NCBI GenBank assembly: GCA_002704905.1
Contig: PAIR01000029.1
Coordinates: 13,061-21,071, forward strand
Direction: 5' to 3'
DNA from: Fidelibacterota bacterium
GTDB lineage: Bacteria; Fidelibacterota; Marinisomatia; Marinisomatales; TCS55
Length of the DNA stretch: 8,011 nt
Positions 1 to 8,011 of this stretch are shown piece after piece. The position numbers and the translations under genes were made by a program. Below the pieces are notes generated by a model that ran no database searches, had not been told where the DNA came from, and saw only the letters and a list, made by a program, of their open reading frames with translations. Positions within the stretch are counted from its first letter, which is position 1, and each line of letters opens with the position of its first letter.

Positions 1-690
1 CGTCGCCAGTTTAAGTTTGTCTATCATATCATTTGTGTAAGGATTGTAAAGCTGTAGGTCGGTATATAGCTCCCAAGTGTCGTTACATGTTTGATCCACC
101 AAATCCAAAAGATCACGAAACCCTTGTGTATCTATGGTTGTTTTACGGATACCATATTCCTTAAGCATTCGTCCAAGAAAGTGAGTTATGCCTTGGGTTT
201 GAGCAGCCATACGATCGTGCTTATCCGGGGACATTTCCATTACTTGGATTCCCTGATCTGTAAAAAATTGCCGCCAAAATTTAAATTGATCGTAAACATT
301 TCTCGTATTGCTCATCATCATTTTTAGACGATTATTAGAGATAAACGAATCAGGTCCAAACATGGGGTGAGTTGCAATAATGCCGATATTTTCAGCAAGA
401 TTATTTTCCATAATTTCAGTGGGGTGCTTTTTTACTGAACACACATCAATGATGGTAGTGCCTTCCGAAAGATTTGGTGAAATTTCTGTGATTACCGATT
501 CAAATTGTCTAATAGGCACAGCAATAAAAATAACTTTTTCTTTCAATATAGATTCTAGATTCGTGAATTCCACTTTGGAGAATTTCCCAATAATTTTTGG
601 ATCATAAGCTTTGATAGCGAATCCTTTTTGTAAAATATTGGCCAATATTTTTCCAAATCGACCAAACCCAATTATTCCGATACTATTCAT
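1..690 (-). CDS. tyrA: Prephenate/arogenate dehydrogenase TyrA, 3' end missing
   Basis: The frame starts with ATG at 690 and stays open for 230 codons to the window edge, so the C-terminus is missing. The enzyme oxidatively decarboxylates prephenate (to hydroxyphenylpyruvate) or arogenate (to tyrosine) with NAD(P). Seen: an N-terminal Rossmann fold with GFGRFG at residues 8-13, DVCSVK at 82-87, the catalytic HPMFGP motif at 108-113 (His108), then SPDKHD at 154-159 and QGITHF at 166-171 in the helical dimerisation domain. The helical part, including ELYTDLQLYN at 207-216, resembles my recollection of plant arogenate dehydrogenases more than E. coli TyrA, so arogenate is a possible substrate. 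There is no N-terminal chorismate mutase domain. The start overlaps the dehydratase stop as ATGA and has a good ribosome binding site, so it is the last visible gene of the operon. Family assignment is firm; substrate is open. Confidence 0.93.
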   Translation of the reverse strand, partial: MNSIGIIGFGRFGKILANILQKGFAIKAYDPKIIGKFSKVEFTNLESILKEKVIFIAVPIRQFESVITEISPNLSEGTTIIDVCSVKKHPTEIMENNLAENIGIIATHPMFGPDSFISNNRLKMMMSNTRNVYDQFKFWRQFFTDQGIQVMEMSPDKHDRMAAQTQGITHFLGRMLKEYGIRKTTIDTQGFRDLLDLVDQTCNDTWELYTDLQLYNPYTNDMIDKLKLAT

Positions 691-1259
691 GAATCTCCTA
701 ATTTTTTGATGCCAAGGAATAAAGTTAAATTGTGTTTCAGATCATGAATGCTTTCCTGAAGAATTTCTAATCCATATAAATCGGCACAGGCTTTATTGGC
801 AATCACACCTGCAGTTGTGGGAAGTTTTCCTTCAGATAATCTTCGAGCTGCTTCTGCCGTATCATCATCTTCAATTAATGGCCTTGTCCAGAAATGTTCA
901 CTTAAATAATCTTTACATTGCCGCAGTGCCTGTTGGTGAGAATGAATTTCCGTGACATCTCCAACATGCATTCCAGCAAGACCCAACAAGTTTTGGATAA
1001 TGGGAATATGAAACATTTCAATTATGTCGCATCGATATTTTGCCAGCGCTTCAACACTTTCAATTACGACTCCGCCTTGTGCATTTTCCATGGCAATTAT
1101 ACCGTAATTTGTTTCGCCATTTTCAATACTGGCCAATACATGTTTCGATGAAATTTGGTAAACAATTTCTGCTCCTTCCAGCCCGTGATTTTGGGCAAAC
1201 GAGTGAGCAGCCTGTTCAGAAAAACTGCCCTTTCCGCCCTGGATTCCAATTGTTATCAT
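687..1259 (-). CDS. pheA: Prephenate dehydratase family protein without ACT domain
   Basis: A 190-residue protein of the prephenate dehydratase family, which converts prephenate to phenylpyruvate on the way to phenylalanine (arogenate dehydratase is the close relative). Seen: GSFSE at 11-15, MENAQGG at 57-63 (plant enzymes have a similar ENSLGG), SHQQALRQC at 107-115 with the conserved Ser107 and Gln114, DTAEAA at 133-138, and an N-terminal-to-hinge length typical of the catalytic domain only. Oddities: the near-invariant C-terminal Thr-Arg-Phe motif reads Thr-Leu-Phe (179-181), so the catalytic Thr is kept but the Arg is lost. The protein ends right after the catalytic domain, so the usual phenylalanine-binding ACT domain is absent; there is no chorismate mutase domain either. 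Overlaps trpA upstream and tyrA downstream by ATGA; AAAGGG lies 5 bases before the ATG. Activity as a normal dehydratase is likely but not certain. Confidence 0.85.
   Translation of the reverse strand: MITIGIQGGKGSFSEQAAHSFAQNHGLEGAEIVYQISSKHVLASIENGETNYGIIAMENAQGGVVIESVEALAKYRCDIIEMFHIPIIQNLLGLAGMHVGDVTEIHSHQQALRQCKDYLSEHFWTRPLIEDDDTAEAARRLSEGKLPTTAGVIANKACADLYGLEILQESIHDLKHNLTLFLGIKKLGDS
695..699 (-). promoter_or_regulatory. Shine-Dalgarno sequence of tyrA
   Basis: AGGAG lies 4 bases upstream of the tyrA ATG, inside the last codons of the preceding dehydratase gene. It is the clearest ribosome binding site in the window and supports the ATG at 690 as the start. Most other genes here have weaker or no such site. 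Confidence 0.7.
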
Positions 1260-2026
1260 TTTATCCCTTTCAATTTTCGTATTAATAATTTTGTCGCATT
1301 TATGGGATTGGTTTTCCCATTCATATTTTTTATTATAGCTGAACCCACCACCGCACCATCCGAGTGTTCATTGAACCAAACCACATCTTCACATGTACTG
1401 ATTCCAAAACCCACGATAAAAGGTGTAGCACTGTTTTTACGTACATGGTTCAAATAATTTGCTAGTGCTTCCTTGGATGCAAGATCATTCCCGGTGATGC
1501 CCAAAATGCTTACAGCATAAATGAGATCACCTGCCAATTCAGATATTTTTCTGATACGTTCATCAGGTGTGTTCGGTGCCACTAGTAAAATTGGGGAAAT
1601 ATTTTTATCCTTGGCCAATTCACAGAATGGTGTTGCTTCTTCTAAAGGTAAATCGGGGAGAATTAATCCATCCACTCCGGCAGATACACAGTGATTTAAA
1701 AATGTTTTATGTCCCATTCTTAAAATTGGGTTGTAATACCCCATGAGCGCTAATGGGACGTCGGTTCTTTTCCTAATCTGCGTCACTTGTTCAAATATTA
1801 TGTTCAGTGTCATACCGTTATCCAACGCTTGCTTGCTGGATGACTGTATCACTGGGCCATCTGCTTGTGGATCAGAAAAAGGAATTCCAATTTCAATCAT
1901 ATCTGCGCCGGCATCTGCAGCGTGACATACTAATTCTACCGTACTATCTAATTCTGGATAGCCAGCAGTAAGAAAGGGAATCAATTTATCTTTAGGTTCG
2001 ATGAATAATTTTTGGATGCGATTCAT
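1256..2026 (-). CDS. trpA: Tryptophan synthase alpha subunit
   Basis: Cleaves indole-3-glycerol phosphate to indole and glyceraldehyde 3-phosphate and passes the indole to TrpB in the cytoplasmic alpha2-beta2 complex. At 256 residues it is a full-length TIM barrel. Seen: the PFLTAGYP motif at 17-24, catalytic Glu45 in [10 protein letters not shown], catalytic Asp56 in QADGP (equivalent to E. coli Glu49 and Asp60), the SILGITG loop in the middle of the barrel, and the phosphate-binding GFGIST and GSAII segments near the C-terminus. The ATG at 2026 overlaps the trpB stop as ATGA, which fits the need for equal amounts of the two subunits; its own stop overlaps the start of the dehydratase gene in the same way. 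Nothing suggests damage. Confidence 0.98.
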
Positions 2027-3231
2027 AAGTTGATCCCCAAGGCTTCTGCTACAGTATGAACATCTTTATCTCCACGACCGGAAAGGCAAACCACCACATG
2101 TTCATCGGGTTCAATTCCATTATCTGACTGACGTAAATATGCCAAAGCATGTGCGGATTCCAGTGCTGGTAAAATACCTTCTTTTTCTGATAACCATTGG
2201 AATGCATCTAATGCTTCTGTGTCAGTGGCGGTATAATATTGTACACGCCCAGACTCGTTGAGATAACTGTGTTCTGGGCCAATGCCGGGATAATCCAACC
2301 CTGCAGAAATAGAATAGGGGAGCGCCACTTGCCCGTCTTCATTTTGGAGTAGTGTGCTTGCGGCGCCGTGCAAAACACCAAAATCTCCTTTTGTCAAAGT
2401 GGCTGCATGTTTTCCACTTTCAAGTCCTTTGCCTCCAGCTTCTACACCAATAATCTCCACATCGTCTTTCAGGTGTGGATAAAATAGTCCCATGGCATTG
2501 GAACCGCCGCCGACACAGGCTACCAGTCGATCCGGTAATTTTTGTCCCGATTGTTCGATAAATTGTTGTTTCACTTCCTTTCCAATAACCGATTGAAAAT
2601 CTCGGACAAGCGTGGGATAAGGGTGGGGACCAACAGTGGAACCAATGAGATAGTAAGTGGATTCAACATTAGTTACCCAATCTCTTATTGCTTCATTTGT
2701 CGCATCTTTTAAGGTCATGCTTCCCGATGAAACGGTGCGGATTTGAGCACCCAACAAGTTCATCCGAAACACATTTAATTTTTGCCTGCGAATGTCTTCT
2801 TCGCCCATATAAACGATGCATTCCAATCCAAACCGAGCTGCCACTGTTGCTGTAGCGACACCATGCTGACCGGCACCAGTTTCTGCAATAATTCGCTTTT
2901 TACCCATGCGATTAGCAAGCAGAATTTGTCCCAATGCATTGTTGATCTTATGGGCGCCAGTGTGGTTTAAATCTTCCCGCTTCAGCCATACTTTGAATCC
3001 CAGTTCGTTGGAGATTCGTTCTGCAAAATAAAGGGCAGTCTTCCGCCCGGAATAATGTTTCAATAAGCCGCTCAGTTTGTTCTGAAATGCTTCATCCTGT
3101 TTAGCTGCTGTGTAATGCTGTTCAAGTTCTTGCAAGGCTGGAATGAGTGTCTCTGGGACAAACTTTCCACCGAATTTATCAAAATGACCCCGAGAATCTG
3201 GAAGATTGTAATCTTTGAATTTATTTTTCAT
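2023..3231 (-). CDS. trpB: Tryptophan synthase beta subunit
   Basis: PLP enzyme that condenses indole with serine to give tryptophan, working with TrpA. The 402 residues match the common TrpB1 form. Seen: GKFVPETL at 22-29, [13 protein letters not shown] around 90-102 with Lys95 as the PLP Schiff base, catalytic Glu117 in AETGAGQHG, the GPHPYP segment at 201-206, and the PLP-phosphate loop GGGSNAMG at 241-248. The start ATG at 3231 is 5 bases after the trpF stop; the preceding bases are A/T-rich without a Shine-Dalgarno sequence, so translation may depend on ribosomes finishing trpF. The end overlaps trpA. The conserved SGRGDKD near the C-terminus is intact. Confidence 0.98.
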
Positions 3232-3236
3232 TTTAA

Positions 3237-3875
3237 TTATGTGTTTGTGAACACGCGAACACTTGAATACGTTCCATCGAGTTTTTTAAAAAGAGTTTTA
3301 ATTTTGTCATGATCTTTAACTCCGGGTGATAATTCTACACCGCTATTTACATCTATCGCAGATGGATTTACCGATGCAATTGCATCTAAAATATTGCTAG
3401 CATTTAATCCACCAGATAAAATTATCGGAGTTTTCTGTTTACCATTTAATAAAGACCAGTCAAATGTTTTACCCGTTCCGCCATAATAGTCTTTAGAAAA
3501 GGTATCCAGTAGAAATCCATCTACATTAAAATCACGCATGACAGACAAACTTGCTTCATCCTTAATCTGCAAAGCCTTTAAGATAGGCACCTTAAATTGA
3601 TTGCAAAATTCTGGTGTTTCATCTCCGTGTAGTTGAATCATGTTGAGGGAAACAAAACCAATTGCTTCTTCAATAAATTCTTTTTCATGGTTAACAAAGA
3701 CGCCAACTTTTGAAATATCATTTGATAGATGGTCAGAAATAAATTTTGCATCTTCTATAGAAATAGCCCGGGAACTTTTTTCAAAAAAAATGAAACCGAT
3801 GGCAGAAGCTCCATGCGCGGCTACTGTTTGGGCATCTGACAAGTTTGTGATACCGCAAATCTTTGTTGGAATCAT
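3237..3875 (-). CDS. trpF: Phosphoribosylanthranilate isomerase
   Basis: Isomerises phosphoribosylanthranilate to CdRP, the third reaction of tryptophan synthesis. A stand-alone 212-residue TIM barrel, not fused to TrpC. Seen: KICGIT at 5-10 with catalytic base Cys7, the QLHG motif at 81-84, the catalytic acid Asp124 in [16 protein letters not shown] at 132-140, LSGGLNASN at 153-161, and DVNSGVE at 175-181 (usually DVSSGVE), followed by the PGVKD phosphate-side loop. The ATG at 3875 overlaps the trpC stop by ATGA and has a run of six G (3881-3886) at ribosome-binding distance. It is followed after 5 bases by trpB. It is more A/T- and Lys-rich than TrpB, but all the key residues are present. 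Confidence 0.97.
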
Positions 3876-4633
3876 GAGAGCCCCCCAACTAATTCTCCTA
3901 ATGCTTTTCCTGGGTTTCCGGTTCTCATGAGCGATGTCCCAATAAGTGCTGCATCATAGCCCAAATCTGAAACGTATTTTAAATCGTTCGATGTATAAAT
4001 GCCACTTTCTGCTACTTTCATACAATTGGATGGAAATGAAGAAATTATATTTTTGAAAAAAGTAATATCGGATGTCATGCTATTTAGATCACGGCAATTC
4101 ACACCTACTATGTCCGGCGCCAATTCAGCGATAATTTCCGCATTTTCTTCCGAGTGAAATTCCACTAGAGGTTCCAGATTTAATTTTTTCCCAAATTTGA
4201 TAAAACCAGAAATATTATCTTTATCCAGTGCTTCGGCGATCAATAAAAATGCATCGGCACCAGCGCGACCCGCTTCCATGATTTGATGCTCACTTATAAT
4301 AAAGTCTTTACATAAAACAGGAATCGAAACTGCTTTTTTCACCGATTCTAAAATATCGATATGTCCACCAAAAAATTGCTTATCCGTAAGTACAGATATG
4401 GCAGAAGCCCCGGCTGCTTCATAATCTTTAGCTATCTGAACAGGATTAGCGTTAGTAAGAATTTCCCCTTCACTGGGAGATTTCATTTTGATTTCGGCGA
4501 TCACCGAAATGCCCGGCGCTGAAAGAGCATCCTTTAGGTTAATTGTTTTGAAAGGATCAAGTAAACTCACACTTGGGTGCACGTGCTCCATTTCTTTTCG
4601 TTTCACGTCTAATATTTGTTCAAGGATGTTCAT
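3872..4633 (-). CDS. trpC: Indole-3-glycerol phosphate synthase
   Basis: Ring-closes and decarboxylates CdRP to indole-3-glycerol phosphate. A monofunctional 253-residue barrel. Seen: the N-terminal ILEQILDVKRKE helix typical of the family, VIAEIKMKSPSEG at 44-56 with the catalytic Glu47 and Lys49, Lys109 in VLCKDFII, Glu158 in PLVEFH, Asn179 in GVNCRDL (Cys where GVNNRDL is usual), AESGI at 208-212, and the phosphate-binding GTSLMR at 232-237. These match the known Glu-Lys-Lys-Glu-Asn active-site set. Overlaps trpD upstream and trpF downstream by ATGA. The short linker to TrpF with a proper stop shows the two are separate proteins, unlike the enteric TrpCF fusion. Confidence 0.97.
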   Translation of the reverse strand: MNILEQILDVKRKEMEHVHPSVSLLDPFKTINLKDALSAPGISVIAEIKMKSPSEGEILTNANPVQIAKDYEAAGASAISVLTDKQFFGGHIDILESVKKAVSIPVLCKDFIISEHQIMEAGRAGADAFLLIAEALDKDNISGFIKFGKKLNLEPLVEFHSEENAEIIAELAPDIVGVNCRDLNSMTSDITFFKNIISSFPSNCMKVAESGIYTSNDLKYVSDLGYDAALIGTSLMRTGNPGKALGELVGGLS

Positions 4634-5625
4634 TCAACCAATTGGTTTAATACATTCAGCGCGGCGCCGGAGTCCACAGCTTCAGCCGCTTTTACCAATC
4701 CTTCTTTTAAATTTTGAGTTTTGCCTCCAACAACAATTCCCGCGGCAGCGTTTAGTAGAACGATGTCCCGTTTTGCTCCCTTATCACCGTTCATAATACT
4801 TCGAATGATTTCTGCATTTTCATTCGGTTCTCCTCCTTGGAGATCATTCAGTGTTGTACGATCAAGACCCAATTCCATTGCATCAAATTCAATTGTATTT
4901 ATTTCACTACCATTTTGTATTTGGCTGATCTTTGTAGTGGTGGTTGTGGAAATTTCATCCAAACCATCGCGACCATGAAAAACCATCACATCAGTAGAAC
5001 CGAGTGCTTTTAACACATTTGCTTGGACTTCTGTTAGATCAGGATGAAAAATTCCCATGGCCTGGGCTTTTACATCGGCGGGATTGCAAAGCGGACCTAA
5101 AATATTGAATACCGTCCGCGTGGCTAGTGCTTTCCGTGAACCAATCGCATGTTTCATGGCGGGGTGATAAGCTGGAGCGAACATGAATCCCAATCCTATC
5201 TCTTCAATATCTTTTGTGGACTCTTCCACTGATTTATCAATGGCAATTCCCAATGCTTGCAGTACATCAGCCGATCCAGATTTTGATGTCATTGAACGGT
5301 TCCCGTGTTTGGCCACATGAACGCCGGCGCCGGCCACTACAAAAGTTGAAGCGGTAGAAATATTAAATGTGCCTAAAGCATCACCGCCCGTACCACACAT
5401 ATCAATAGCTGCGGAATCCAGAGGGACTGTAACCATTTTCTCACGCATGGCCTGGGCGAATCCTGTGATTTCATCCACCGTTTCACCTTTTGCCCTGAGC
5501 GCTATAAGAAATCCGGCAATTTGTGCGTTGTCATATTCACCGGACATAATGGAGAGCATCACATTGAATGCTTCATCCCGGTTGAGATTCTGTTTCCTGA
5601 GTAATTGTTCTAATATTTGTTTCAT
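4630..5625 (-). CDS. trpD: Anthranilate phosphoribosyltransferase
   Basis: Transfers phosphoribose from PRPP to anthranilate. At 331 residues it is the usual stand-alone form with no fused glutaminase domain. Seen: the N-terminal helical domain, then the PRPP-binding CGTGGD at 77-82, KHGNRSMTSKSGSAD at 106-120, Arg170 in TRTVFNILGPLCNP, and the metal-binding Asp223-Glu224 in GRDGLDEIS. It follows trpG after a 55-base spacer, the largest gap in the operon, and has no obvious Shine-Dalgarno sequence. The stop overlaps trpC by ATGA. A Thr-rich stretch (STTTTT, about 226-231) follows the Asp-Glu pair; nothing suggests loss of function. Confidence 0.98.
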   Translation of the reverse strand: MKQILEQLLRKQNLNRDEAFNVMLSIMSGEYDNAQIAGFLIALRAKGETVDEITGFAQAMREKMVTVPLDSAAIDMCGTGGDALGTFNISTASTFVVAGAGVHVAKHGNRSMTSKSGSADVLQALGIAIDKSVEESTKDIEEIGLGFMFAPAYHPAMKHAIGSRKALATRTVFNILGPLCNPADVKAQAMGIFHPDLTEVQANVLKALGSTDVMVFHGRDGLDEISTTTTTKISQIQNGSEINTIEFDAMELGLDRTTLNDLQGGEPNENAEIIRSIMNGDKGAKRDIVLLNAAAGIVVGGKTQNLKEGLVKAAEAVDSGAALNVLNQLVE

Positions 5626-5680: not shown

Positions 5681-6250
5681 TTAACATTCAGTGTTTAAAA
5701 AGTTTTTAATAATCTGCATTCCATTTTCTGTTGCAATGGATTCAGGGTGAAACTGAACACCAAACACAGAGTGCGATTCATGCTCAATACCCATTATGAG
5801 TCCATTATCCAATTCGGCCGTCACTTTAAATTCTTTTGGAAGTGAATTGCGGTCAGCAATCAATGAATGATATCGTGTACCATGAAATGAACCATTAATT
5901 CCACCAAACAGTATGGAACTATTATGTTGAATATTGGCTGTTTTCCCATGGACAATCTCTGATGCGTGAATCACTGTACCTCCATAAGCTATTACAATAG
6001 ATTGATGCCCTAAACAGACCCCAAGGATTGAAATTGAGGAACCAAACTCCTGGACAACCTCAACAGATCGACCCGCCTCTTCAGGCCGCCCCGGCCCAGG
6101 GGAAATCACAATATGTGTAGGTGACCATGTATTGACCTGGCCTAATTCAAACTGGTCATTGCGAACCACTTTTACATCTTGATTAATGGATCCAATGTAT
6201 TGCACCAAATTGTAGGTGAAAGAATCGTAGTTGTCGATGACAAGAATCAT
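5681..6250 (-). CDS. trpG: Anthranilate synthase glutaminase subunit
   Basis: Class I glutamine amidotransferase that releases ammonia from glutamine and feeds it to TrpE. A 189-residue stand-alone domain. Seen: ILVIDNYDSFTYNL at 2-15, the oxyanion-side PGPG at 51-54, the nucleophile Cys79 in GVCLGHQ, HGK at 101-103, and the His168/Glu170 pair in QFHPES, completing the catalytic triad. The ATG at 6250 overlaps the trpE stop by ATGA, as expected for partners made in equal amounts. PabA (for aminodeoxychorismate synthase) has the same sequence features and a single protein often serves both; the position directly after trpE favours TrpG. There is no fusion to TrpD, which follows after a 55-base spacer. 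Confidence 0.97.
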   Translation of the reverse strand: MILVIDNYDSFTYNLVQYIGSINQDVKVVRNDQFELGQVNTWSPTHIVISPGPGRPEEAGRSVEVVQEFGSSISILGVCLGHQSIVIAYGGTVIHASEIVHGKTANIQHNSSILFGGINGSFHGTRYHSLIADRNSLPKEFKVTAELDNGLIMGIEHESHSVFGVQFHPESIATENGMQIIKNFLNTEC

Positions 6251-7731
6251 GTTACTAAACCATTTTCCGCTAAATCAATAGCCGTCATGATGGCTTTGGC
6301 CTTATTCACCGTTTCTTCAAATTCTTTGGTTGGGTTTGAATCATGAACGATTCCTGCTCCAGATTGAAAATGAACTGTTCCATCCTTCATTATCATGGTG
6401 CGGATTGCGATACACGTATTTACATTTCCCGTAAAATCAAAAAATCCAACAGCACCGGAATAAATGTTCCGTCGCTCTGGTTCTAAATTGTGGATGATTT
6501 CCATGGCCCGAATCTTTGGGGCACCGGTGACCGTCCCTGCTGGGAATCCGCTCATGAGCGCATCAAATGGGTCTTTGTCCAAAGACAATTTTCCCTTTAC
6601 ATCAGAAACAATATGCATCACGTGAGAATAATTTTCAATCACCATGTTCTCCGAAATTGTTACGGAACCGAATTCAGATACGCGCCCCACATCATTTCGC
6701 CCAAGATCCAAGAGCATCAAATGTTCGGCGCATTCCTTTTCATCATTGATTAAATCTCTTGCCAGTGCTTGATCTTCTGCATCCGTTTGTCCTCGGTGGC
6801 GTGTACCTGCGATGGGACGGATCTCTACGGTGCAGCCATCAACTTTCACCAAGAGTTCAGGGGATGCGCCAATAATATCAAAATCATTTATCTTTAAATG
6901 AAACATGTAGGGCGACGGGTTGATCGTCCGAATTGCCCGATAGAGTGTGGTCGGTTCTACCGATGTTTTCCGCTCAAATCGCTGGCTAAGGACCAACTGG
7001 AAAACATCTCCATCTATGATGTGTTCTTTTGCTTTTAGTACGGCTGATTCAAATGTATCTTGATCAAAATTAGAAGACGCTGTGCTTTTTTCCACACGGA
7101 TCGGTGTTTGGTAATCCACATCTGAATGGAGTGATTCTCCGATAGAATCAACTCTTTCATGTGCTTCATCGAACTGTTGTTTGAAATCACGCTCTGAATC
7201 CACTTTTACATTGGAAATCACCAGCGCCGATCCTTTCAAATGGTCAAAGGCGATCATATCTTCAAATAGCATGAAAACTGAATCGGGGACATCTAAATCA
7301 GATTCATCATGGATCGGAATATCTTCTACCCAAGCGATGGTTTCGTAACCAAGGTAGCCTACCAGCCCACCGGTGAAAGACGGAATTCCCGGTAATTTTG
7401 CCATATTATATTGGGATTGGGTTTCACGAAGCAAATCTAAAAAAGGGATTTCCACTGCAGTGGTTTGTACACCTTCATTTATGGTGGTTTGCCCATTTTT
7501 ATGCATGAAAATCTTCTGTGGATTAATGCCCACATAAGAATATCGTGCATATTGATTACCTTTTTCTACCGATTCCAACAAAAAGGCATATTCCGCTTTC
7601 TTGGAAAGGTGAACCCATGCCGCCACTGGTGTGAGTAGATCAGCCAATATCCGTTTATAGACAGGTACGGTTTGGCATCCCTGGGAAACCAAGTCTTGAA
7701 ATTCGTCGTATGTAAGTTGTGTTTTATCCAT
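6247..7731 (-). CDS. trpE: Anthranilate synthase component I
   Basis: Makes anthranilate from chorismate with ammonia from TrpG; the committed step to tryptophan. With the ATG at 7731 it has 494 residues. Seen: an N-terminal domain with LLES at 51-54 and NPSPYMFHL at 271-279, both parts of the known tryptophan feedback site, then the chorismate-binding domain with IRPIAGTRHRG at 304-314, Mg-binding NDEKECAEHLMLLDLGRND at 329-347, catalytic His371 in YSHVMH, and GTVTGAPK at 399-406. Intact feedback motifs imply enzyme-level inhibition on top of the attenuator just upstream. Start choice: an in-frame TTG at 7740 sits within the terminator's T-run, so the ATG is preferred. No Shine-Dalgarno sequence is visible; only 7 bases separate the T-run from the ATG. 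PabB is the main alternative, but trp neighbours and the feedback motifs support TrpE. Confidence 0.97.
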   Translation of the reverse strand: MDKTQLTYDEFQDLVSQGCQTVPVYKRILADLLTPVAAWVHLSKKAEYAFLLESVEKGNQYARYSYVGINPQKIFMHKNGQTTINEGVQTTAVEIPFLDLLRETQSQYNMAKLPGIPSFTGGLVGYLGYETIAWVEDIPIHDESDLDVPDSVFMLFEDMIAFDHLKGSALVISNVKVDSERDFKQQFDEAHERVDSIGESLHSDVDYQTPIRVEKSTASSNFDQDTFESAVLKAKEHIIDGDVFQLVLSQRFERKTSVEPTTLYRAIRTINPSPYMFHLKINDFDIIGASPELLVKVDGCTVEIRPIAGTRHRGQTDAEDQALARDLINDEKECAEHLMLLDLGRNDVGRVSEFGSVTISENMVIENYSHVMHIVSDVKGKLSLDKDPFDALMSGFPAGTVTGAPKIRAMEIIHNLEPERRNIYSGAVGFFDFTGNVNTCIAIRTMIMKDGTVHFQSGAGIVHDSNPTKEFEETVNKAKAIMTAIDLAENGLVT

Positions 7732-7738
7732 TTTGAGC

Positions 7739-7768
7739 AAAAAAAAACCCCGATCAAAGTCGGGGTTT
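7739..7768 (-). terminator. Intrinsic terminator of the operon attenuator
   Basis: On the transcribed strand AAACCCCGA (7768-7760) pairs perfectly with TCGGGGTTT (7753-7745) around a 6-base CTTTGA loop, followed by a run of nine T (7747-7739, three of them in the stem). This is a textbook rho-independent terminator. It sits between the leader peptide and trpE, only 7 bases before the trpE ATG, so unless prevented it would end transcription before the operon. It cannot be the terminator of the partial upstream gene alone, because the leader peptide and a complementary segment lie between them. Confidence 0.88.
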
Positions 7769-7813
7769 AAACATAGTCAGCATGCACAGGTATACCTGGG
7801 ACTAAGAAACCCC
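7762..7813 (-). promoter_or_regulatory. Antiterminator of the aromatic operon leader
   Basis: GGGGTTT (7813-7807), lying in codons 17-19 of the leader peptide, is an exact 7-base complement of AAACCCC (7768-7762), which is the 5' arm of the terminator. The two pairings exclude each other. A ribosome stalled on the aromatic codons 6-13 leaves GGGGTTT free, so the antiterminator can form and the operon is read. A ribosome at the stop codon covers it, so the terminator forms. Competing upstream pairings exist: GGTAT over the first Trp codon (7836-7832) with ATACC (7793-7789), and ACCC (7822-7819) with GGGT (7812-7809). The complementarity is seen; the switching is inferred from the classic trp attenuator. 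Confidence 0.75.
7780..7798 (-). repeat. Adjacent palindromes between attenuator arms
   Basis: CAGGTATACCTG (7787-7798) is a perfect 12-base palindrome and GCATGC (7780-7785) a 6-base one. They lie between the leader peptide stop and the terminator. The first can fold as a short CAGG/CCTG stem and would sit in the loop of the antiterminator, where it could shorten the effective distance between the pairing arms or act as a pause signal. Confidence 0.4.
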
Positions 7814-7861
7814 TCCATGGGTAAAAAACCAATACCAGCTGTAATAATTTTTTGTGTTCAT
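7802..7861 (-). CDS. trpL: Aromatic-rich leader peptide of the operon attenuator
   Basis: A 19-codon frame, ATG at 7861 to TAG at 7802, encoding MNTKNYYSWYWFFTHGGVS. Seven of the eight residues at 6-13 are aromatic: Tyr6, Tyr7, Trp9, Tyr10, Trp11, Phe12, Phe13. Its role would be to report aminoacyl-tRNA supply: a ribosome stalling at these codons leaves the GGGGTTT segment in codons 17-19 free to block the terminator. It is placed exactly as expected, upstream of the terminator and trpE. Unlike the E. coli leader (two Trp codons only), this one contains Tyr and Phe codons, matching the tyrA and dehydratase genes at the far end of the operon. No clear Shine-Dalgarno sequence precedes it; a GTG three codons upstream is in frame and could be an alternative start. 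The sequence is seen; translation is inferred. Confidence 0.82.
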   Translation of the reverse strand: MNTKNYYSWYWFFTHGGVS

Positions 7862-7865
7862 ATCA

Positions 7866-7880
7866 ATCACGTGCTGTGAT
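7866..7880. promoter_or_regulatory. Inverted repeat ATCAC-N5-GTGAT before the leader peptide
   Basis: A perfect 5-base inverted repeat with a 5-base spacer, including a CACGTG core (7868-7873), ends 5 bases before the leader ATG and overlaps a possible -10 box. Its symmetry and place would suit a repressor operator or a short 5' hairpin. I do not recognise it as a known TrpR or TyrR site, and arms this short can arise by chance. Confidence 0.3.
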
Positions 7881-7929
7881 ATTAAGGATAGGAAAGAACG
7901 ATAACTAACTTTTTTTATTTCTTTTGCAA
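7879..7929 (-). promoter_or_regulatory. Probable promoter region of the operon
   Basis: Transcription must start between the end of the partial upstream gene and the leader peptide, or just inside that gene. Candidates are a -10-like TAATAT (7884-7879) with no good -35, and a -35-like TTGCAA (7929-7924) with only a poor -10 about 16 bases on. A further pair inside the upstream gene, TTGAAA (7970-7965) with TACTAC (7947-7942) 17 bases apart, is also possible. The region is very A/T-rich, which suits a promoter, but no box pair is convincing. Confidence 0.3.
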
Positions 7930-8011
7930 TTTTTTTGAAATGTAGTAAAAAGAGCGAATAATAGTTTCAATATCCTCTTTTTTTAACTTTCCTTCAAGTT
8001 TTATAGAAAGT
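7915..8011 (-). CDS. C-terminal end of an unidentified upstream gene
   Basis: A frame open from the window edge encodes 31 residues, LSIKLEGKLKKEDIE... ending ...SKKLQKK, and stops with TAA at 7917-7915. It is on the same strand as the operon and ends 53 bases before the leader peptide. The visible part is a short strand followed by a charged, Lys-rich amphipathic helix. This layout is vaguely like the C-terminus of fold-type I PLP enzymes (aminotransferases, cysteine desulfurases), but there is far too little to name it. A frame of this length could also be open by chance. No terminator is seen between its stop and the leader, so read-through into the operon leader is possible. Confidence 0.45.
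   Translation of the reverse strand, partial: LSIKLEGKLKKEDIETIIRSFYYISKKLQKK

What the first reader, a model, noticed from the sequence alone, without database searches (positions are those of the whole stretch)
7823..7846. Leader peptide senses Tyr, Trp and Phe together
Codons 6-13 read Tyr-Tyr-Ser-Trp-Tyr-Trp-Phe-Phe. Known amino acid leader peptides usually carry codons for the regulated end product: Trp alone for trp operons, Phe for pheA. Here all three aromatic amino acids are represented, and the operon carries the trp genes plus genes of the Phe and Tyr branches. The simplest reading is one attenuator that opens the operon when any one of the three charged tRNAs is short. That would be a cross-pathway control differing from the single-amino-acid attenuators of enterics. 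The codon content is seen; the multi-input sensing is inference.
Basis: partly seen in the sequence, partly recalled or inferred. Interest (0 to 1): 0.85.

Follow-up and report, generated by a model that had tools for sequence, protein, structure and literature searches.

The report
Leader sensing Trp, Tyr and Phe
A short leader peptide gene in a Marinimicrobia bacterium carries codons for tryptophan, tyrosine and phenylalanine in front of one gene cluster that makes all three amino acids, and it would likely switch that whole cluster on when any one of them runs short; most of the relatives examined that lack the tryptophan genes there also lack tryptophan codons in their leader.

Summary
Confirmed and strengthened. 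Codons 6-13 of a 19-residue leader (7861-7802, minus strand) read Tyr-Tyr-Ser-Trp-Tyr-Trp-Phe-Phe. A terminator follows, then 16 same-strand, mostly overlapping genes: trpEGDCFBA, pheA, tyrA and seven shikimate-pathway genes. Named homologues of PheA point to Candidatus Neomarinimicrobiota/Fidelibacterota.

In 51 genomes the aromatic run holds Trp codons in 27 of 27 clusters with trp genes but in 4 of 24 without them that kept pheA-tyrA-aro; Tyr and Phe codons stay. Twelve phylogenetically independent pairs: 9 agree on average, 0 oppose, 3 do not differ; sign test p 0.002-0.008. Six trp operons with no aro, pheA or tyrA gene seen beside them carry mainly Trp codons.

Three competing hairpins (protector, antiterminator, terminator) are conserved. 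With an E. coli-like footprint (recalled), only a ribosome stalled at codons 5-13 covers the protector while leaving the antiterminator free but for one base; the aromatic run is codons 6-13.

Likely mechanism: ribosome-mediated attenuation as an OR gate for three tRNAs. Trp versus Tyr/Phe is well supported, Tyr versus Phe weakly. No experiment. New variant of a known kind.

The parts
7903..7908 (-). promoter -35-like TTAGTT (TTGGTT/TTGGTA in many relatives)
   Evidence: read by eye; alignable in relatives; the consensus scan did not list it
7879..7884 (-). promoter -10-like TAATAT
   Evidence: read by eye; present in most of the 21 upstream regions printed
7802..7861 (-). leader peptide ORF MNTKNYYSWYWFFTHGGVS
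   Evidence: leaders called before trpE in 49 of 62 trpE-bearing genomes of the phylum
7823..7846 (-). control codons 6-13, Tyr Tyr Ser Trp Tyr Trp Phe Phe
   Evidence: content follows operon content
7838..7841 (-). protector hairpin, 5' arm CAGC (end of codon 7 and codon 8)
   Evidence: 93.3% of cells paired in 15 relatives, CAGC:GCTG to CAGT:ACTG
7778..7781 (-). protector hairpin, 3' arm GCTG
7800..7813 (-). antiterminator 5' arm GGGGTTTCTTAGTC (leader codons 17-20 and 2 nt beyond)
7762..7778 (-). antiterminator 3' arm GACTATGTTTAAACCCC (its AAACCCC is the terminator's 5' arm)
7787..7798 (-). inner hairpin of the antiterminator, CAGG/CCTG
   Evidence: helix 3
7745..7768 (-). intrinsic terminator stem AAACCCCGA/TCGGGGTTT
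   Evidence: z -3.0; 99.3% of cells paired
7739..7747 (-). run of nine T after the terminator
6247..7731 (-). trpE
   Evidence: TIGR00564
5681..6250 (-). trpG
4630..5625 (-). trpD
3872..4633 (-). trpC
3237..3875 (-). trpF
2023..3231 (-). trpB
1256..2026 (-). trpA
687..1259 (-). pheA, prephenate dehydratase domain only, no ACT domain found
1..690 (-). tyrA, runs off the window; DAHP synthase (class II), aroA, aroE, aroC, aroK, aroB, aroQ follow on the same contig
7915..8011 (-). 3' end of a chorismate mutase gene (cut by the contig end)
   Evidence: read by eye; the whole gene stands there in relatives

Best explanation
A 19-residue leader peptide gene (7861-7802, minus strand) stands ahead of a terminator and of a 16-gene cluster for the whole aromatic amino acid pathway, and its run of Tyr, Trp and Phe codons is predicted to let transcription through when charged tRNA for any one of the three is short. 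Inferred working: (1) With all three tRNAs charged the ribosome reaches the stop codon, covers the antiterminator arm (7813-7800), the terminator (7768-7745) forms and transcription stops before trpE. (2) With Tyr-, Trp- or Phe-tRNA short it stalls within codons 6-13; there it would cover the protector arm (7841-7838) and leave the antiterminator arm free, so the antiterminator takes the AAACCCC that the terminator needs and all 16 genes are transcribed. (3) Without a ribosome, or after its release, the protector hairpin would keep the antiterminator from forming, as segment 1:2 does in E. coli trpL (recalled). Shown here: codons, genes, conserved competing pairings, and the match between the leader's codons and the genes of the operon. 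Not shown: transcript, read-through, tRNA response.
For: Leader codons follow operon content: Trp codons in the run in 27 of 27 clusters with trp genes and 4 of 24 without, 12 independent pairs on a PheA-TyrA-AroA-AroC tree, 9.0 agreeing and 0.0 opposing on average, p 0.002-0.008. Site by site in alignable leaders, Trp 28/28 against 4/18, Tyr/Phe 68/70 against 44/45. Two of the four exceptions show fresh trp-deletion scars: G108 (trpE start joined to a trpA end, both Trp codons left) and G010 (trpE start in front of trpA, one Trp left); G032 has one Trp left; in G046 the Trp lies in the antiterminator arm. Six trp operons without aro/pheA/tyrA seen beside them have mainly Trp codons. In four f15 genomes with trp genes a second leader, MKNF(N)nYYFYF-like and without Trp, stands before the aro-pheA-tyrA half. 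Pairings; antiterminator arms pair better with their own partner than with other genera's (0 of 10000 permutations of 36 representatives). Stall window codons 5-13.
Against: No expression data. Tyr and Phe codons swap freely, so their separate roles are not shown by conservation. Tyr/Phe codons persist in some trp leaders without pheA/tyrA beside them: G104, G180 (doubtful call), G181, G151 and G152 (the last two with shikimate genes), and the trp leaders of family f15. Three genomes (G153, G155, G157) have the genes but no leader was seen. In the window alone the antiterminator is not significant against shuffles (fraction 0.07) and the whole leader folds at z -1.46. Antiterminator pairing beats 5% of shuffles in 48 of 78 leaders. 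On alignment A3 one measure goes the wrong way (further pair types 8 against 10.6 in shuffles), and pairs with double changes are not unusual for the protector (106 of 500 shuffles). No Shine-Dalgarno sequence was evident by eye.
Confidence: 0.8

Rival explanations
1. A plain tryptophan attenuator: only the two Trp codons matter, and the Tyr/Phe codons are filler.
For: Trp sites never vary in the 14 alignable leaders with trp genes (28 of 28), while Tyr and Phe replace each other.
Against: Leaders without trp genes keep the terminator, antiterminator and Tyr/Phe codons and drop Trp; trp operons without aro/pheA/tyrA beside them have few Tyr/Phe codons near the Trp run.
Confidence: 0.04
2. Two inputs rather than three: Trp, plus Tyr/Phe as one undivided class, with only one of these two tRNAs limiting in practice.
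For: Tyr and Phe codons interchange at the same sites, and with about six such sites both would be present by chance in about 97% of leaders (arithmetic), so finding both in 50 of 50 proves little.
Against: In family f25 Phe codons are present in the two genomes where a PDT gene was found (G194, G198) and absent in the three where none was found (G195, G196, G197; two of these 66-69% complete); G023, without PDT or PDH matches, has no Phe codon. Few and related genomes.
Confidence: 0.13
3. An arrest peptide of the TnaC kind: the nascent aromatic peptide itself stalls the ribosome on free aromatic amino acids.
For: Hydrophobic aromatic run near the C-terminus; stalling at a fixed place would also switch the hairpins.
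Against: The run varies in sequence, length and spacing and W is lost with the trp genes, which suits codon reading better than a fixed arrest motif. The logic of TnaC (excess opens a catabolic operon; recalled) is opposite to that expected of a biosynthetic operon.
Confidence: 0.03

Closest known systems
E. coli trpL / pheL attenuators (recalled)
   Same: Short leader ORF with control codons for the product, three competing hairpins including a terminator before the first structural gene.
   Different: Those carry codons mainly for one amino acid and control one branch; here three aromatic amino acids are encoded, before a cluster holding trunk and all three branches.
ilvGMEDA, ilvBN and thr leaders of enterics (multi-amino-acid attenuation; named as attenuated operons in a passage of PMC1183508; their codon make-up is recalled)
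   Same: One leader with codons for several end products of one operon.
   Different: Branched-chain or Thr/Ile, not the three aromatic amino acids; and here the codon list is seen to change with gene loss in relatives.
Actinobacterial trp attenuators (PMC1262725, passages seen)
   Same: Leader with terminator and antiterminator before trp genes.
   Different: Reported with double or triple UGG codons; the paper's conclusion reports no conserved RNA structures before Phe or Tyr operons in Actinobacteria.
Bacillus subtilis aromatic supraoperon (recalled)
   Same: Trunk and branch genes for aromatic amino acids gathered together.
   Different: Controlled by the TRAP protein and Trp (recalled), with no leader peptide of this kind.

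Membership tests
Ribosome-mediated transcription attenuator of an amino acid biosynthesis operon | Short ORF with control codons for the operon's products just before the operon | tested here: met
Ribosome-mediated transcription attenuator of an amino acid biosynthesis operon | Intrinsic terminator between leader and first gene | tested here: met
Ribosome-mediated transcription attenuator of an amino acid biosynthesis operon | Antiterminator that competes with the terminator and overlaps the end of the leader ORF | tested here: met
   in the window alone not significant against shuffles (0.07), shown by comparison
Ribosome-mediated transcription attenuator of an amino acid biosynthesis operon | Protector (1:2) hairpin formed by the control codon region | tested here: inconclusive
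   93.3% paired, two pairs with double changes, but 106 of 500 shuffles reach that number; tested only in 15 near relatives
Ribosome-mediated transcription attenuator of an amino acid biosynthesis operon | Read-through rises when the cognate charged tRNA is short | not testable with these tools
   needs an experiment
Multi-amino-acid (OR-gate) leader | Codons for each of several products, each kept only while its genes are there | tested here: met
   Trp against Tyr/Phe. Tyr apart from Phe: inconclusive
Rfam leader families, T-box included | Match to a curated covariance model | tested here: not met
   four matches at E <= 1, all far below gathering scores and none an amino acid leader or T-box

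The most novel reading that the evidence does not exclude
The leader is an evolving codon register: one attenuator that reads Trp, Tyr and Phe tRNA as an OR gate for an entire 16-gene pathway, with each codon class kept or erased according to which genes stand behind it, and with a control run that fills exactly the stretch where a stalled ribosome masks the protector but frees the antiterminator. In this lineage it would take over from allosteric control, since PheA has no ACT domain.
Probability: 0.5. Interest if true: 0.85.

Novelty: new variant of a known kind. Interest (0 to 1): 0.72.

Why it matters
Attenuators are usually treated as sensors of one pathway's end product. Here one leader would set the common trunk and all three branches at once, and repeated loss of the trp genes provides a natural experiment that shows, codon class by codon class, what the leader reads. 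It gives a direct way to ask how fast a regulatory codon decays after its gene is lost (both Trp codons left in G108, one in G010 and G032, none in 20 others), and a ready test of multi-input attenuation in a phylum with very few cultures.

Tried and rejected
Rfam at E <= 1: four weak matches, all far below gathering score. Folding of single leaders: not significant except for the terminator, so comparison was used. The promoter scan missed the conserved promoter. A leader before separate pheA genes (G152, G151, G194, G198, G209, G217, f23) was looked for in the fetched flanks and none was recognised. Trp-only reading, arrest-peptide reading and T-box considered and put low. Literature searches listed no paper that describes a Trp+Tyr+Phe leader, judging by titles, abstract starts and the passages read; subscription papers are not held.

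Rows dropped before counts. Tree: of 61 order genomes with pheA, 28 have trpE, of which 22 were used (left out: G104, trp and pheA apart; G060, G069, G072, G074, G075, two leaders), and 33 have none, of which 24 were used (left out: G095 weak match and not fetched; G067, G070, G076 not fetched; G073, G082 cut by contig; G051, G086 with trp genes at a contig edge; G053 no call, by eye a leader without Trp). Five class-level genomes with trp were added. G010 keeps trpA and was counted as without trp. Octets: 14 and 9 alignable leaders only (G008 and others not alignable). Pair counts: 15 leaders; four more were aligned and dropped because their terminator is shifted, and G008 was listed but not aligned.

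Full report
What is there. On the minus strand a 19-codon ORF (7861-7802) encodes MNTKNYYSWYWFFTHGGVS. Codons 6-13 (7846-7823) are Tyr Tyr Ser Trp Tyr Trp Phe Phe, as reported. An intrinsic terminator (7768-7745, nine T) follows and trpE starts at 7731. Same-strand genes follow with overlaps or short gaps: trpG, D, C, F, B, A, pheA and tyrA in the window, and on the same contig a class II DAHP synthase, aroA, aroE, aroC, aroK, aroB and aroQ. That makes 16 genes: from DAHP synthase to Trp, and to the last pathway-specific steps of Phe and Tyr. The missing chorismate mutase stands just upstream of the leader in many relatives; the window holds its 3' end (read by eye). That the 16 genes are one transcript is inferred from the spacing.

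Whose it is. The window's genome is an unnamed draft of 1.19 Mb, 77% complete. Among the best 120 of 980 protein matches to PheA, the sources' own names include Candidatus Neomarinimicrobiota, Marinimicrobia and Fidelibacterota, and one says Chloroflexi. I take the phylum to be Fidelibacterota (SAR406); the isolate paper PMC11652737 was seen in a search listing only.

The natural experiment. trpE is present in 62 of 245 genomes of the phylum and an ACT-less pheA like the window's in 61 of 130 of the order. I fetched cluster regions, mapped genes by blastp to the window's proteins and called leaders automatically. The caller looks for any aromatic run before a terminator and does not weigh Trp against Tyr or Phe. 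Clusters with trp, pheA and tyrA have leaders with all three kinds of codon; clusters without the trp genes have leaders such as MNKENYYSLYRFFSREGVL (G011), KNYYSSYFFF (G034) or NYYYKFF (G013), with the same terminator and antiterminator.

Numbers. On a tree of PheA, TyrA, AroA and AroC (51 genomes, careful search), the run has Trp in 27 of 27 trp-bearing and 4 of 24 trp-lacking clusters (5 of 24 if the whole leader is counted). Twelve independent pairs: 9.0 agree, 0.0 oppose, 3.0 do not differ; p 0.002-0.008. With the whole leader counted: 8.0, 0.0, 4.0, p 0.004-0.016. In the first tree (50 genomes, quick) every leader had at least one Tyr and one Phe codon, and the mean number of aromatic codons hardly differed, 6.81 and 6.25. 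In alignable leaders Trp sites are kept 28 of 28 and 4 of 18, Tyr/Phe sites 68 of 70 and 44 of 45. The four exceptions: G108 and G010 carry visible trp-deletion scars, G032 has lost one of two Trp codons, and in G046 the Trp lies within the antiterminator arm.

The converse. Six trp operons of two distant families, with no aro, pheA or tyrA gene named beside them, have Trp runs with at most a stray Phe close by (NWWWEK, NWWWQMM, NNWWWEM, RWWKN, QWWKR, QWWHF); one of them, G136, is cut by its contig end. In five f25 genomes with tyrA but no pheA in the cluster, Phe codons are present in the two with a PDT match elsewhere and absent in the three without. G023, with no PDT or PDH match, has IWWYNY. 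In four f15 genomes a second leader without Trp codons precedes the chorismate mutase-aro-pheA-tyrA part, while the trp leader has TWKWYF. Against the rule: G104, G180 (a doubtful call, no antiterminator) and G181 are trp operons whose leaders keep one to three Tyr/Phe codons in the run per kind; G181 has a weak PDT fragment behind trpA that may be a pheA remnant. G151 and G152 keep Tyr/Phe codons with shikimate genes but no pheA/tyrA in the cluster.

The switch. GGGGTTTCTTAGTC at the leader's end pairs with GACTATGTTTAAACCCC, the last seven bases of which are the terminator's 5' arm. In 78 leaders the best pairing of the leader's end overlaps that arm by at least 4 nt in 72; it beats 95% of shuffles in 48, the window itself just missing (0.07). 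Own partners pair better than swapped ones among 36 representatives (mean -18.3 against -13.6 kcal/mol; 0 of 10000 permutations). In 15 near relatives the antiterminator has 92.2% of cells paired (31-44% when slid), with four pairs changed on both sides, such as A-U to G-C before the stop codon. A protector of codons 7-8 (CAGC) with GCTG has 93.3% paired (0-35% when slid), including CAGT:ACTG. It would explain the lone Ser codon in the aromatic run. Statistical support for the protector is modest: 20 of 500 shuffles for cells, 106 of 500 for pairs. The terminator has 99.3% paired without double changes.

Geometry. With a footprint from 19 nt before to 10 nt after the A-site codon's last base (E. 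coli-like, recalled), a stalled ribosome covers the protector arm and leaves the antiterminator arm free, but for one base at codon 13, only with codons 5-13 in the A site; at the stop codon it covers all 14 antiterminator bases. The aromatic run is codons 6-13. In 67 leaders of the phylum a ribosome at the stop codon covers the antiterminator arm in 67, while 313 of 437 aromatic codons upstream leave it wholly free.

Comparison. The mechanism is the known ribosome-mediated attenuation. New, as far as searches show, is the set of three aromatic inputs on one cluster holding trunk and branches, and the erasure of one input after gene loss. I read passages of PMC1262725 and PMC1183508 only. PheA of the window lacks an ACT domain; PheA proteins outside such clusters in G209, G152 and G217 match ACT (one of three above the curated cut-off), but G194's does not. 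So a trade of allostery for attenuation is a hint only.

Verdict. Multi-input attenuator: likely (0.8), with Trp against Tyr/Phe well supported by comparison and Tyr against Phe open. Interest 0.72.

Noticed in passing
window 687-1259; L272, L273, L274, L276, L283: PheA here is a bare prephenate dehydratase of 190 aa without an ACT domain; separate PheA genes elsewhere in the phylum match ACT in G209, G152 (both below cut-off) and G217, not in G194; in f23 (L283 tested) it is fused to prephenate dehydrogenase.
   Followed up: partly
L137:11683-13026 and L156 chorismate mutase: A class II DAHP synthase lies in the cluster and a small chorismate mutase just upstream in relatives; in mycobacteria such a pair forms a regulated complex (recalled), so joint allosteric control is possible here.
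   Followed up: no
L206 (G108), L192 (G010): Deletion scars: the start of trpE is still in front of the remaining trpA end (G108) or of trpA (G010), so the loss of the trp genes is recent there.
   Followed up: partly
L150, L215, L268, L269: Four small-genome relatives (family f15) have two leaders in a row, one before trpE with Trp, Tyr and Phe codons, one before the chorismate mutase-aro-pheA-tyrA part with Tyr and Phe only.
   Followed up: partly
L222 (G107:C76): This contig of G107 carries a cluster and leader of the f15 type beside G107's own cluster, so it is probably contamination of the draft genome; it was left out of the tree.
   Followed up: no
L142, L196, L200: In G020, G013 and G021 genes like pabA, pabB and pabC stand between the chorismate mutase (seen in G020 and G021) and the leader.
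   Followed up: no
L234, L235, L237: G153, G155 and G157 (genus g39) have trp genes but no recognisable leader before trpE or before their chorismate mutase.
   Followed up: partly
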